Assembly (NCBI GenBank): GCA_018350325.1
Contig: JAEVLN010000005.1
Location: 692,142-756,141, forward strand
Length of the DNA: 64,000 bases
Direction of reading: 5' to 3'
From: Globodera rostochiensis
Lineage: Eukaryota; Nematoda; Chromadorea; Rhabditida; Heteroderidae
This document shows, in pieces, positions 55,540 to 62,100 of the stretch. Every line of letters begins with the position of its first letter. Position 1 is the first letter of the stretch. Position numbers and translations under genes: made by a program. The notes beneath the pieces were generated by a model. The model made no database searches, was not told the DNA's origin, and saw only the letters and a list, made by a program, of their open reading frames with translations.

Positions 55540-56520
55540 ATGAAATCGCTTCTTCAGACTCCAATTGTATTGGTCGTCCTCCCCCTCCTCTTTCTGTTGG
55601 GAAGTTGCCTCGGTTTTGGTATTTTGTGACTCTTTTATTTTGCTTCCTATAACCAATTAGGGTGTTCAACCCCAGTTTCCTGTTAACATCGAATGCATAA
55701 AAGCCAAGTTTTCAAAATATTCTTTAAATTTTCAATCAAACCATATAAATGGGGCTTTTCAAAAAACCCGGTTGACCGTGTTCAAAATCATAAGCCGGGT
55801 CTCCAAATCCCGATTTTAAACCGGTCTTGAACAGCCCAACTCATTAATTAATGCATTTAAATATTAACAAACAGAACTTCCCCTGATATGCCGAGGCAGA
55901 GATGGTTTCTCTCTGCCCAAATATGAAATAGTTGACTGTTCTCCACCAGATGATCATTGTTTTTCGGGTTTTTGTCATACAGGTAAAAAGAATGAAGATG
56001 AATTAACGCTTACACATTTTAATTTCTACCAAATTTTTGGGATGGAATGTTTTCAGACAGGGAGAAGCCCAACGAGTACTACTACATTTTCGGATGTGCT
56101 GAGTATCAATATAATAACAACGAATGCCGCAATGAAATCGGCAAATTTGAAGATGAAGCAATACAAAATGGCCAAATGGAAGTGCACCTGCTGGGTTCGG
56201 GAAAAAGGCAAACATATGGCAAATCTCGAGTTATATCCGCCGGGTGCCATTACGGTGTTTCCGTTGCCGCCACCGCCGCTGTTTCCGGACGAGCCGGTGC
56301 GCCGTTGGCAGCTGTCCAAAAGGCGTTGTTCGCCGCGTTGTTGATAATTGGTACATTTTGAAAATTGATTTATTTAAAAAAGCATAAAAAATGCATTAAG
56401 CAAACATTTCAGGCATTTTAACCCACTTTTTCCACGGCACCATCTTCACTGATCATCAGTCCTTCAATCATATAATGGAATTTGAATCTGTGGTGGCCAA
56501 CCAGAGATGAGAATTTGTAG
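55540..56520 (+). CDS. Secreted/membrane cysteine-rich protein, orphan
   Basis: Four exons in phase: 55540-55612, 55875-55982, 56057-56350, 56413-56520 (stop TGA). Exon 1 encodes a signal peptide (MKSLLQTPIVLVVLPLLFLL). Exons 2-3 encode an extracellular domain of about 70 residues with eight cysteines (ICRGRDGF, VDCSPPDDHCFSGFCH, IFGCAEYQYNNNECRNE, AGCHYG). A hydrophobic segment (AAVQKALFAALLIIGILTHF) near residue 150 would make it a type I membrane protein. Cysteine spacing recalls small disulfide-rich surface domains, but I cannot assign a family. The adjacent downstream gene is also secreted. Confidence 0.68.
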
Positions 56521-57730
56521 ACGAAAATAAATGATGAAATGTTTCAATTAAAATTAATTAGAAAATTTAAACGCTTTGAACTAGCGGACAACACGGTCCT
56601 TTTCGGTTATAAGTCCAATTAGGTTGGTCTCTGGTTTTTTGTCTTTATCAAAATGAATATTTTTTTTACATATTTTGCATTTTTAAATTCATTTTAGAAA
56701 AATGCAATAAAACTGAAAATTTGCTATTTTGGCAAAAATAGATAAATTGCAGCTAATCTTTCGACGATTTGTCATCCACCCATTTGTTCATCATCACCAA
56801 ACTTTCATTATTCACAACGTTTTTTATTTTCATTACTTTCTCCGCTAAATTTCCAAAAAAAAAAGATGATAAACATTTGTGAATGTTCAAATATTCTAAT
56901 CGTTACTCATCCTCAACAAAATTTGTATACATTTTCAGGCCACATTTTTGGATTTAAAAAGGGAAATAAAAATAGAACTATTTTCATTTTTAAAGAAAAA
57001 TGAATTTATCTGCCTAGCCTTTATTGAAAATCAAAATAATGAAAAATCCCCTTAGCCTATTAAATTTCGTGAATTAAAAATGCGGCATTTTTAATTCTAT
57101 GAACAAAATACACAAATTTTTGACTTGTAATATTTTATTCCGTAAACGGAAGAATTAATTCCACTTTCTGAAGCTAAAAATTAGAGTTCGGACCAAAACC
57201 CAAAACTAAAACATTTTTAGGTTGTTTTGTACAAAATTTTTTACCAATATTATTGACCAAATTTTGTTTGGTCCAAATTGGAAAAAAACCAAAAGAAAAC
57301 CAAAACCAAAATAAACCCAATATTATTGACCAAATTTTGTTTGGGTCCAACATTCCGGTCTCTACTCAAAATTACATAAGCCGTGATCTATAAAGTAAAT
57401 TCCGCTTGCTAATTACCTAATTCGTTAATCGAAAAAATTCAGTGAATCAAAAATATTTTGGGAAATCAAATTATTAAAATGTGAATATTTTAAATCCGTA
57501 AACGAGCCCACATTTCTAATTTATGGATTCTTTAATGCAATAATTTATTGTTTTTTTGCGTGAATCCAATTTTTATTATGCAATAATTTCCCAATCCAAC
57601 AAATTTGTTCTCACTATAAAAAGTTTTTAAATTACAAAAACTATAAAAAATTAATTTGAGCAAATATTCCAGCCAATATAAACTCAGAAATCTTTTGAAA
57701 ACAACATTTTTTTATTCCGTTTCCATTCAA
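56521..57730. other. AT-rich intergenic
   Basis: Upstream region of the micro-exon gene. At 57181-57365 is a repeat with TTAGAGTTCGGACC and GGTCTCTAC ends and duplicated ATTATTGACCAAATTTTGTTTGG. A TATA-like AATATAAAC lies at 57676-57684. No gene seen. Confidence 0.5.
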
Positions 57731-58848
57731 ATGAATTTTTTTTCGTACATTTTTGCGACTGCTGTGCTGTCCATTCTCTCTCACCAAACAATTTCTGAAG
57801 AGGTATTCATTAAATTTTAAAAAAACTGAAAATAAAATAAATGGAAAAAATTAAAAAAAAATTCTGTTGTTTTAATATTATATTCAATGTTTAGAACGTC
57901 ACTCAAATTGCCGTGTTGAACAGAACTGTTGAACTTGCACACAATGGCACACAAATTTCTGTTTTATTTTTTATTTTAGCATTAAAATTTAGTCACATTG
58001 CCGCCGCTTGCAGTCGTAAAGCGCGAAGGTGTGGAAAAATATAAGAAAATTAAAATGCTTTTCTTTATAATTTAGTTGTACAAGAAGACTCGCCTGAAAA
58101 TGGTATAAAAATTTAATGTTAGCCTTCCGTTTAATAGATTACGATTTTTATGAACAATTAAATTAGCCTAATTTAGTTGATCAGATAGACCCAGCGTCGT
58201 ATGATGGTAGGCAAAGATTTTTGTGCAATTAAATTAGTCTAATTTAGTTGATCGGCCAGAGCCAACATATGATGGTAGTCATAACATTTTAATGCCCCAA
58301 TTTTTTTGACATTTATTCACTAAAATTTAAGATAATATGCCAGAAACAGTGGCAAAACGCGATGGTAAGGAAAAAATATTCAGAAAATTTAAAAAATAAA
58401 AAACTAAAATTGAGTTGCACAACAAAAACAACAAGTCCCGCAGAAAGCTGGTAGGGAACTTTTTGTCATCTGCTTTATTGTGAACAAATAAATAACATTT
58501 ATTATTTTGTTTAATTTAAAAAATTAGACAATCAGACAAACCCACAGAAAAATGGTGAGAATAATGTGTAAAATTTGTTGGTTTTACTGTCTCAAAATTT
58601 GCAAGTAAAATATGATAAAAATAAATGATTTTTTTAAAATGATTTAGTTGAAGAAAATCGAGTAGCCGTCCCACAGGAACTTGGTAGGAAAACATCTGCT
58701 TTTATTGTGAATAAATTTAATTGTTTTTTTTTGATTTAGCTAATCAGACGGACCCACAAGCTAATGGTAGAGGAGAATATTTTTAAATAATTTATTTTAA
58801 TGCTATAAAATTGTTTATTTTTTAAATTAAGGTGGTGTTTATACTTAA
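57731..58848 (+). CDS. Secreted micro-exon gene with duplicated phase-1 exons
   Basis: Exon 1, 57731-57802, encodes a signal peptide (MNFFSYIFATAVLSILSH). Exon 2, 57895 to about 58015, carries three N-glycosylation sequons (NVT, NRT, NGT) and a hydrophobic stretch; its 3' end is the least certain. Then come eight tiny exons: 58076-58102 (27 nt), 58177-58206 (30), 58248-58274 (27), 58332-58364 (33), 58415-58450 (36), 58528-58554 (27), 58648-58683 (36), 58740-58766 (27), and a terminal exon 58832-58848 (stop TAA). All eight are multiples of three and flanked by phase-1 introns, so any can be skipped or duplicated without frameshift. Each ends in a codon split after G. Encoded peptides include DQIDPASYD, DRPEPTYD, NQTNPQKN and NQTDPQAN. 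No known family; mature protein about 100 residues, hydrophilic, P/Q/N/D-rich. One acceptor (TGAG at 58414) is weak. Confidence 0.72.
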
Positions 58849-59186
58849 CCCATCTTTCACGGCAAAGAAAAGTTTTGGTAATTTATGAACTTTAAGTGAG
58901 CGATGCCTCCAAATGGATTTGAAATGCGGCGATTTGGCTTGTGATGAGAAAAGCATGATCGATCGATACAGAAATTAATGTTAACAAAGTTTACAATGCA
59001 ATAGAATAAATTAATCGTTTTCACAAATTCCAAAAACGTTTATAAATACTGCAAAAAATGTTATTAGCCCCCCATTCTCGAGACGATAGCGAAATTTATG
59101 CTTTTGCACGCTAATTTATGGAAATTTTGCTCAATAATTCATAGAAAAATTATTGATCGATCAGCCACTTCATTTTCTCGCTCTGA
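58849..59186. other. Spacer between convergent genes
   Basis: AT-rich DNA holding the 3' regions of the micro-exon gene (+) and trehalase (-). No gene seen. Confidence 0.5.
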
Positions 59187-62100
59187 TCATGCGCCCTTGA
59201 AGGGTGGGAATACTTCCGGTTCCGGCTCCTTGACATTTTGTTTGCACTTTACAGTCGGCATCTCTTCCAGTGTCAATTCGTGCCCATACGTAGCCAAAAG
59301 ATCCAAAACGGCACCATTGGTCCATCCAAAGCCGATCTGAGCATTTTGATCAAATTCAATGAGGTTTTGGCATTGGAAGTTTTTCCTCCCACCCGCCGAG
59401 TGATTTGAACCAAATAAAAATCAGGCAAAATATATTATTTTCAACAATTTTTATGCCAGGCATGCCCCCATTAAAAAGAGCTAAAACGATCATTCAATTG
59501 ATCAGATTTGAGCTGTCCAAAACTTAATGCATAATGTTACTCGTTTTTTGTTACTAATTGATTTGTTCCGTTTATGATTCTTTTTTGTATGTATGAGCCC
59601 CCAAAGTGATTAGCAAAACGATCACTTGCGCGTGGAAATCCCCGTGGGCACCGGAAGTGCCCGTGTCGGCCGCCATCTTCATCCACATGAATTTGTAACA
59701 GCTCTGGTACAGCTTGTAGTTGGCGGACAGCCATTGCCGTGCCCATTGCTTGGCCTTGTCCTCCATTCTGAGTGAATATTGTAAAGAATGGATGTACGGC
59801 ATTTGTTGATTATTAATTTATATTTTGATCAAATAAAATATACTTTTTGCTGCCCGAACGACGAAAGCTTTCAATCATCATGTGACTCAATGGCTTAAAA
59901 GCTGAATTATTAACCATAAAATTATTCGAAAAATACTTTCACAGAACCTGCCAAAGTTTTCTTCAATAAAAATGAATTTTCTCAAAAAACTTTTCAGTAG
60001 CGCCTATTGACATTAAACTTTATTATTAAAATAAATAAATTTCAAAATTTTGATATTCCTCAAAAACGAAATGTTCTTTAAATCCGGGTCTAGCTTTACC
60101 ATTTTCCCTTACCGGCCAAATGTTTGGAAAGTCCCACTGTTGTGAGGTGTTGACGACTGAGCTGAAATTGTTTTTCACAGATTAAATCCAGTTAAATTCC
60201 CCCCCCCCCTCCAACAGCTTCAAATGCACCTTGTCGGTATTCCGAACGGATGTTTCAGAAGACCATGGTCACGGTCCATTGCCTCGAACGTTTTGAACAC
60301 CCTTTCCGCCGACTCCACATCAACAGTGCCGTAGCATCTCGTGAACAATGGCATTACAATGCTTCCATAAAATGCTTTAGGACTCTTTTGGCCGGCACTT
60401 CCCTGTTTAAAGTCGTTGTATGTGCCGAATTTCTCGAGAAAGTCCTCGCGAAAGCGTTGGTACTTCGTATAGTACATGGTGGCATTTTTTTTGTCGCCTT
60501 AATCCCAGTAAGTGCAGAAATTATAAAGATTTTTGGCTTCAGAAAATTCAGCTAAATCTTGACGATTTTCACTACAAGTTCAAAAATTTGGCTTCTTGGT
60601 TTGATTTTTGTATCAGAATTTACCAATTTGGAGAAATAAGTGGGCTATCTTCTCGAAGTTTCCACAGATCAGTGCGTTCAAGTCCACCGGCACAATGTCG
60701 GTTGTCACCAAATTGATCAATTTCCACGGGTTGCTTTTGTCCTCGGTGTCCTCGCGGATCCATCGGGCTAAATTGGGGTAAATTCTCGTGATCCGGCTCT
60801 CTGAAAAATTTTGAGAATTTTAACTTATTCGTTAATAAATAGGTCCACTATTTTCAACCTTTGGAAAAATTTTAAAAATATTCCTTAATTAGTTGAAATG
60901 GCGGCATTATATTGATTTTCCATGTAATTTTTTCTCTTCTTTAAGCTTTTTTGTTGGGGGGTCCGGGGCCTAAAAAAAGATTACAGCAAAAAAATTATTT
61001 TGTTCAATATTTTTTGTGAATTTTCAGACTCACAACTGAAGTCCCATCCGGACTCGGCCGTAGACGCCATTTGCTTCCAAACGGCTGCCTTTTTCTTCGG
61101 GTCCGTGATGTCCTTGACGAGGTCCACGTCTTTGCAGAATGACTCCGGACGAGGCACCTTTTAACATTGAGGAGCCTATAATTATTGTCCTTTTAAATTC
61201 TGCATTTTTCTTCATTTTTAAATTCGAACCATCCGAATAATTCGATTTCTGAACAATGGTCAGAATTTTGCTTGTCGCCTGATTATTATTATTATTTGGA
61301 AAGATCCGATCATTTGTTGAGTATCATAATAAAATAATAAATGTTTTGATCATGCAAACACTAGTGCTCGGCAATGGCATCGATACGATATATCGAACGA
61401 TATTTCGATAAAATATCGGTATCGAAAAATATCGAATTCCTAACATTTTTCCGATACGATATATCGAACGATATTTCGATAAAATATCGGTATCGAAAAA
61501 TATCGAAAAAAAACCGATATATCGCGATATTTTTATCGAAATATCGTATCGTGCCGAGCACTAGCAAACACTGCTCGCTCAGCTGACCAACATTGCTGTT
61601 TGCCCTGTATTGATAAAATTGCGCATGCCGATTGTTGTTCATGAGGACAGTAACATTGCGATTTGTAAGCCAAAAGTTGAGTTCCTTTTGCAATAAAGAA
61701 ATCCATTTTAATTGGTTGTTAATTGAAATTAATTAATTTTGTTTTTATGAATATTTGAAAAATTGAATTTGACCTTGACAAGAACCGGTAGCATTTGCCT
61801 AAGAAATTCGGTGTCACCGGTGGCCCCATAATAATCATAGACCATTCTGAATGTTTAATGCTTTAAATTGTTGTTTATAATCATGTTTTGTGACTAAAAC
61901 GTACGACGTGAGGAAGGGCGGTTGAGAACGTTTGCTGTAGTAAATTCGGCCTCCGTTCGGCACAAAGCCAAAATGGTTGACCAACTCCGCAAAATTCATG
62001 CACATGGACTTCACCGACTTTTTCATTCCTAATGTTTTAATTTAAATTGTATTGATCAGCTTCTCTTAAAAGACGGATGGATAGTGAGTGATTAGGAGGA

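What the first reader, a model, noticed from the sequence alone, without database searches (positions are those of the whole stretch)
57731..58848. A micro-exon gene for a secreted protein, growing by exon duplication
Eight consecutive exons of 27-36 nt, all multiples of three and all bounded by phase-1 introns, follow a signal-peptide exon. This matches the rules of the micro-exon genes (MEGs) of schistosomes, which make variable secreted proteins by exon skipping. I know of no such gene described in plant-parasitic nematodes. The cassette design would allow up to 256 in-frame combinations. The cyst-nematode HYP effectors are hypervariable through in-exon repeats; this looks like a different route to a similar end.
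Basis: partly seen in the sequence, partly recalled or inferred. Interest (0 to 1): 0.93.

Follow-up and report, generated by a model that had tools for sequence, protein, structure and literature searches.

The report
Micro-exon secreted-protein gene in cyst nematode
A potato cyst nematode gene for a small, probably secreted protein is cut into nine tiny interchangeable exons whose number differs between gene copies and apparently between species, an architecture known from parasitic flatworms that may let the protein vary cheaply.

Summary
At 57731-58848 a signal-peptide-like exon (72 nt) and a 52-nt exon are followed by NINE consecutive exons of 27-36 nt (57993-58766), all multiples of three, all phase 1-1, then a short last exon. 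Under one fixed rule this chain is unmatched in the 273,016 bases scanned: outside this gene and its paralogue the longest chain is 2, as in 1000 simulated sequences. A paralogue on contig C21 keeps 18 of 18 shared splice dinucleotides but has two micro-exons fewer. Databases hold a G. rostochiensis protein identical across ten of the first eleven exons, lacking one and ending in an alternative last exon, and two G. pallida relatives, one with three copies of a unit present twice here. Exon-number change in DNA is shown between the paralogues; exon skipping in RNA is only hinted at, by annotations. It meets a published operational definition of a micro-exon gene (MEG), but its introns (41-93 nt) are far shorter than in schistosomes and no homology to MEGs was found. 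Effector function is unproven; no DOG box lies upstream.

The parts
57731..57802 (+). E1, 72 nt, signal-peptide-like exon (phase-0 donor GAG|GTATTC)
   Evidence: against the C21 paralogue 4 synonymous and 0 non-synonymous changes and one 9-nt in-frame indel
57895..57946 (+). E2, 52 nt, converts phase 0 to phase 1; GC donor (ATG|GCACAC)
   Evidence: GC kept in the paralogue; junction used in A0A914HNV2 and GPALN_004857 but not in A0A183CKD2; GC/AG introns are 3.46% in G. rostochiensis (PMC4901422 passages)
57993..58028 (+). E3, micro-exon 36 nt
58076..58102 (+). E4, micro-exon 27 nt (absent from the A0A183CKD2 protein)
58177..58206 (+). E5, micro-exon 30 nt, first of the 71-bp duplicated unit
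58248..58274 (+). E6, micro-exon 27 nt, second copy; C21 has one exon where this gene has E5 and E6; G. pallida GPALN_004857 has three units of this type
58332..58364 (+). E7, micro-exon 33 nt
58415..58450 (+). E8, micro-exon 36 nt (acceptor ATTGAG)
58528..58554 (+). E9, micro-exon 27 nt (missing from the annotated protein A0A914HNV2)
58648..58683 (+). E10, micro-exon 36 nt, diverged copy of E8 at 233 bp; absent from the C21 paralogue
58740..58766 (+). E11, micro-exon 27 nt, diverged copy of E9
58832..58848 (+). E12, last exon with stop (5 residues; the two G. pallida proteins read further)
58897..58922 (+). E12', alternative last exon that fits the C-terminus of A0A914HNV2 (acceptor TTTAAG)

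Best explanation
This is an intact, apparently Globodera-restricted gene for a small secreted, cysteine-free, probably disordered protein. Its mature part is built from nine symmetrical phase-1 micro-exons. Each micro-exon with neighbouring intron sequence is a unit that can be duplicated or lost without disturbing the frame, because every cassette ends in G and all introns in the cassette region are phase 1. The gene thereby changes protein length and repeat number over evolution, while the signal peptide stays constant. Shown: exon anatomy, conserved splice sites, exon number differing between two copies in this genome. Inferred: that the exons are spliced in by intron definition across 41-93-nt introns in most transcripts; that exon number also differs between species at the DNA level; that some transcripts may skip single cassettes; and that the protein acts outside the worm's cells, perhaps at the host interface.
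For: Exon chain unmatched in 273,016 bases and 1000 simulations. Paralogue: 18 of 18 shared splice dinucleotides kept; of 18 alignment gaps between start and stop, 1 lies in an exon (9 nt, in frame), 2 are the large gaps (65 and 155 nt) that take out a micro-exon each, and 15 lie in introns, none a multiple of three; 1 in 348 exon bases against 15 in 446 intron bases, p = 0.0016. A0A914HNV2 is identical over E1-E8, E10 and E11. GPALN_004857 has three units where E5/E6 are two. Exon pairs E5/E6, E8/E10 and E9/E11 are similar beyond shuffles (0, 1 and 0 of 2000). Signal exon 4 synonymous: 0 non-synonymous against mature region 4: 19 (p = 0.004; codons split by introns not counted).
Against: No RNA evidence was available. 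Exon and intron substitution rates between the paralogues do not differ significantly (30 of 348 against 61 of 483, p = 0.07). The mature dN/dS of 1.35 is not distinguishable from 1 (p = 0.80), so neutral drift of a disordered protein is possible. The GC donor of E2 fits the published consensus poorly, and A0A183CKD2 reads through that intron. In C21 the intron between E9 and E11 would be only 30 nt, so that copy may skip E9 or be decaying.
Confidence: 0.85

Rival explanations
1. Functional micro-exon gene: cassettes are regularly skipped in RNA, giving many isoforms of a secreted protein (schistosome MEG-like protein variation).
For: All cassettes are symmetrical and every junction codon is sense. 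Annotated proteins lack whole micro-exons: E9 in A0A914HNV2, whose other exons match this locus exactly; E4 and E9 in A0A183CKD2. An alternative last exon fits. The signal/mature contrast in substitutions resembles that reported for MEGs (PMC4350168 passages).
Against: The missing exons may be prediction errors, allelic absence or true species difference. Introns are short (41-93 nt), favouring intron definition and constitutive inclusion; schistosome MEG introns are 0.1-5 kb (PMC10526429 passages). No reads were available.
Confidence: 0.3
2. Ordinary intron-dense gene: a disordered secreted protein under weak constraint that happens to be split by many short constitutive introns; exon number drifts neutrally.
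For: Mature dN/dS not different from 1; exon and intron substitution rates not significantly different; short introns.
Against: No comparable chain in the 273 kb scanned. Ten consecutive introns of the same phase (after E2 to E11) with cassette-wise duplication are not expected of random intron gain. The frame is kept in all ten shared exons.
Confidence: 0.4
3. Not a gene: a chance chain of splice-like motifs in AT-rich repeats.
For: AT-rich region; the 71-bp unit is a direct repeat.
Against: as above.
Confidence: 0.02
4. A host-targeting pharyngeal-gland effector.
For: Signal-peptide-like start, found only in Globodera, changing mature part. The C21 copy lies about 4 kb from an ATGCCA-rich tandem array followed by another signal-peptide-like exon.
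Against: No ATGCCA on either strand within 1.3 kb upstream of this copy, nor in the 500 bp upstream of the C21 copy, whereas 77% of 101 dorsal-gland effectors carry one (PMC4901422 passages). Tissue unknown; amphid, cuticle or reproductive secretion are equally possible.
Confidence: 0.35

Closest known systems
Micro-exon genes (MEGs) of schistosomes and tapeworms
   Same: Signal peptide followed by a run of tiny exons divisible by three; frame-neutral cassettes; no known domains (for the relatives here; PMC4413821 passages, for MEGs); mature part changes faster than the signal peptide.
   Different: Nematode, no sequence homology found; exons 27-36 nt rather than mostly 15 nt and introns 41-93 nt rather than 0.1-5 kb (PMC10526429 passages); exon skipping not demonstrated; exon number differs between copies by unit duplication and loss.
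HYP hyper-variable effectors of potato cyst nematodes
   Same: Same genus; secreted; variable number of short repeat units.
   Different: The HYP variable domain lies in a single exon and the variation is genomic, not splicing (PMC11228951 and PMC4177990 passages); here each repeat unit is its own exon. No HYP protein was among the three hits of the protein searches.
G. rostochiensis A0A914HNV2, G. pallida GPALN_004857 and A0A183CKD2 (uncharacterised proteins)
   Same: Same gene or relatives; shared signal peptide and cassettes.
   Different: Named only as uncharacterised, hypothetical or 'Secreted protein'. They lack E9 (all three) and E4 (A0A183CKD2), differ in copies of the E5/E6 unit and in the C-terminus, and A0A183CKD2 also differs in the E8 stretch and reads through intron 2.

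Membership tests
Micro-exon gene (architecture definition of PMC7653826) | At least 7 exons; at least half of them shorter than 70 nt and divisible by three; at least 4 such in a row | tested here: met
   12 exons, 9 of them micro-exons, run of 9 (predicted model); definition read as a passage
Micro-exon gene (schistosome/tapeworm) | Signal peptide, secreted product | tested here: met
   By reading E1 only; no signal-peptide program was run; A0A183CKD2 is named 'Secreted protein' by its source
Micro-exon gene (schistosome/tapeworm) | Variant proteins by exon skipping | not testable with these tools
   No transcript data; annotation differences only
Micro-exon gene (schistosome) | Long introns (0.1-5 kb) between the short exons | tested here: not met
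   Introns between micro-exons 41-93 nt; schistosome values from PMC10526429 passages
Micro-exon gene (schistosome) | Higher dN/dS in the mature part than in the signal peptide | tested here: met
   Paralogue pair 4:19 against 4:0 syn:nonsyn, p = 0.004; small counts, one pair; pattern from PMC4350168 passages
Micro-exon gene (schistosome families) | Sequence homology to a MEG family | tested here: not met
   Only 3 Globodera proteins at E <= 10 in 5.77 billion sequences; the search needs shared 5-residue words, so remote homology is not excluded
HYP effector | Variable repeats inside one exon between conserved flanks | tested here: not met
   Repeats are separate exons in the predicted model; HYP structure read as passages
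[quoted passage not shown]
   None in 1.3 kb upstream at C45; none in the 500 bp upstream at C21

The most novel reading that the evidence does not exclude
Nematodes independently evolved a micro-exon gene: nine phase-1 cassettes that are both skipped in RNA (up to 512 in-frame forms) and gained or lost in DNA, giving a plant parasite a second, HYP-independent way to diversify a secreted protein.
Probability: 0.27. Interest if true: 0.9.

Novelty: new variant of a known kind. Interest (0 to 1): 0.7.

Why it matters
MEGs are said to appear restricted to platyhelminths (PMC4350168 passages). A sequence-unrelated gene of the same architecture in a cyst nematode would be convergence, and would make the open question of what micro-exon architecture is for testable in a second phylum. 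It also shows exon-by-exon gain and loss between two copies in one genome, and suggests that gene prediction may miss such exons, as reported for flatworm MEGs (PMC7653826 passages).

Tried and rejected
Neuropeptide precursor: two KR sites exist (E3, E7) but no repeated peptide with an amidation glycine; rejected by reading. Pfam: 0 families at E <= 1 for the three annotated relatives. Other copies in this genome: the DNA search gave this place and one other on C21, matched in three pieces (the tool calls such counts lower bounds); a 30-position exon pattern with up to 3 mismatches allowed found four sites, all in these two copies. Wider homologues: a profile search had 2928 candidates and returned the same three Globodera proteins. 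Literature: the searches (15 of 16 papers listed) listed no paper whose title or abstract start describes micro-exon genes in plant-parasitic nematodes; one search matched nothing at all and says little. In three listed papers whose passages I opened (PMC8307930, PMC6327390, PMC4054779) 'microexon' is a mapper option; in PMC4413821 it concerns flatworm MEGs (passages). The other listed papers not cited elsewhere were seen only as listings. Diversifying selection: exons of the duplicated units differ more than the introns duplicated with them (23 of 87 against 14 of 96), but p = 0.06, so it is not claimed. Structure prediction was not run (likely disordered, shallow alignment). In one search I left ten short loci (L001-L004, L006-L011) out: eight overlap the two gene copies, two come from the primer search. 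A first count of 16 intron indels included the tail of a large gap; recounted as 15.

Full report
WHERE IT IS. The window is 64 kb of contig C45 of a 92.6-Mb, 80-contig assembly. The ITS primer PITSr3 matches it perfectly six times, five of them on one contig; the primer's name and letters occur together in four listed papers on potato cyst nematodes (listing only; that it marks G. rostochiensis is recalled). Published G. rostochiensis assemblies are 92, 96 and 101 Mb (PMC8359618 passages), and ten exons match a G. rostochiensis protein exactly. The source is therefore G. rostochiensis or something extremely close.

ANATOMY. E1 57731-57802 encodes a signal-peptide-like start. E2 57895-57946 ends in a GC donor and shifts the phase from 0 to 1. 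E3 to E11 (57993-58766) are 36, 27, 30, 27, 33, 36, 27, 36 and 27 nt long, each a multiple of three, each entered and left in phase 1. E12 (58832-58848) carries a stop. Introns are 92, 46, 47, 74, 41, 57, 50, 77, 93, 56 and 65 nt. The ten exons E2-E11 all end in G, so the residue at any junction depends only on the downstream exon, and no junction codon is a stop. An alternative last exon, 58897-58922, also fits.

CHANCE. Under one fixed motif rule the gene gives a chain of nine. A thousand first-order Markov sequences gave at most two, as did 208 of 210 sub-windows of this window, the other two overlapping the gene. In 22 sequences totalling 273,016 bases, both strands and three phases, the four chains of four or more are in this gene or its paralogue and every other set reaches at most two. 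A looser rule is less clean: it also takes a tandem array in L014, and other sets reach up to six.

THE PARALOGUE. One other copy was found, on C21, with 81-84% identical DNA in three pieces. Flanking matches, including 45 bp of the neighbouring signal-peptide-like exon, spread with gaps over about 3.0 kb of C21 and 3.6 kb of the window, so a segment was duplicated. Of 12 exons, 10 are shared; all 9 acceptors and 9 donors compared are kept, the GC donor included. Between start and stop the alignment has 18 gaps: one in an exon (9 nt, in frame), two large ones (65 and 155 nt) that each remove a micro-exon with intron sequence, and 15 in introns, none a multiple of three (1 in 348 exon bases against 15 in 446 intron bases, p = 0.0016). 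Substitution density does not separate exons from introns significantly (30 of 348 against 61 of 483, p = 0.07). C21 has one exon where this copy has E5 and E6, and lacks E10; the latter leaves a 30-nt intron between E9 and E11, shorter than any in this copy, so E9 of C21 may be skipped.

INDEPENDENT RECORDS. The protein search returned 3 proteins at E <= 10 from 10 candidates, and the profile search the same 3 from 2928 candidates. A0A914HNV2 (G. rostochiensis) is residue-identical over E1-E8, E10 and E11, lacks E9 and ends with E12'. GPALN_004857 (G. pallida) has three units where this gene has E5 and E6, and no E9. A0A183CKD2 (G. pallida) has two such units, lacks E4 and E9, differs in the E8 stretch and reads through intron 2. 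These are database proteins, not transcripts that I saw, and I do not know whether A0A914HNV2 comes from an assembly independent of this one. They show that other annotations use the same junctions, and they differ from one another by whole cassettes, which may be real skipping, allelic or species difference, or prediction error.

HOW IT CHANGED. E5/E6, E8/E10 and E9/E11 are diverged copies (0, 1 and 0 of 2000 shuffles as good), and introns next to them are copies too (I4/I5 and I8/I10, 0 of 2000 each; I9/I11 less clearly, 90 of 2000). I infer that an intron-plus-exon unit was copied once as a single exon and once as a pair. E8/E10 (24 of 33 identical) and E9/E11 (19 of 27) differ more than E8 (33 of 36), E9 (26 of 27) and E11 (25 of 27) do between the paralogues, so that pair duplication is older than the gene duplication and C21 lost E10. 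For E5/E6 the direction is open. More distant pairs are mixed: E3/E7 (0 of 2000), E4/E5 (6), E4/E9 (48), E7/E8 (584); a common origin of all nine is not established.

SELECTION. Between the paralogues the signal exon has 4 synonymous and 0 non-synonymous changes; the mature part 4 and 19 (p = 0.004; intron-split codons not counted). The mature ratio of 1.35 is not significantly different from 1 (p = 0.80). The pattern resembles that reported for schistosome MEGs (PMC4350168 passages), but it equally fits relaxed constraint on a disordered protein. The three database proteins have no cysteine after residue 22, 17-21% D+E, 12-19% N+Q, 8-11% P, and 3 to 5 N-glycosylation sequons each; disorder itself was not computed.

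MECHANISM. Most likely the short introns are recognised by intron definition and most cassettes are included, while unequal exchange in the repeated intron-exon units changes exon number in DNA (inference). RNA-level skipping is possible and costs nothing in frame, but was not testable. Function is inferred only: secreted, genus-restricted as far as searched, variable. The dorsal-gland DOG box is absent upstream of this copy and from the 500 bp upstream of the C21 copy.

COMPARISON. By the operational rule in PMC7653826 (passages) this is a micro-exon gene. By intron length and by sequence it is not a schistosome-type one. DeMarco 2010, the main MEG splicing paper, is not held and was not read. 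I found no description of such a gene in plant-parasitic nematodes in the searches listed under Tried and rejected; subscription papers and preprints were not covered.

Noticed in passing
L005:9158-9293 (C21:872657-872792): Eight ATGCCA motifs (minus strand) at 18-20-bp spacing in a tandem array, about 120 bp before a signal-peptide-like exon near L005:9412; looks like a DOG-box-rich promoter of a secreted-protein gene about 4 kb from the C21 copy.
   Followed up: partly
window 59187-59420, minus strand (gene may extend to about 63282): Open frame with a weak Pfam Trehalase match (E 0.0015, 18 bits, cut-off 21); three further minus-strand stretches tested up to 63282 matched nothing. Trehalase-like motifs by recall: perhaps a trehalase gene next door.
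   Followed up: partly
window 55540-56361, plus strand: A second signal-peptide-like exon and a downstream open frame without a Pfam match; 45 bp of the exon (55577-55621) recur at C21:866005-866049 at 93%.
   Followed up: partly
window 57179-57364: Dispersed repeat with dozens of matches (72-99% identical) across the genome, ending about 366 bp before the start codon.
   Followed up: no
window 61360-61500: Dispersed, partly tandem repeat (spacing of about 71 bp on C3) with dozens of matches at 93-100%.
   Followed up: no
L014:6081-9912 (C21): Tandem array of about 30 units that mimics a micro-exon chain under loose rules.
   Followed up: no
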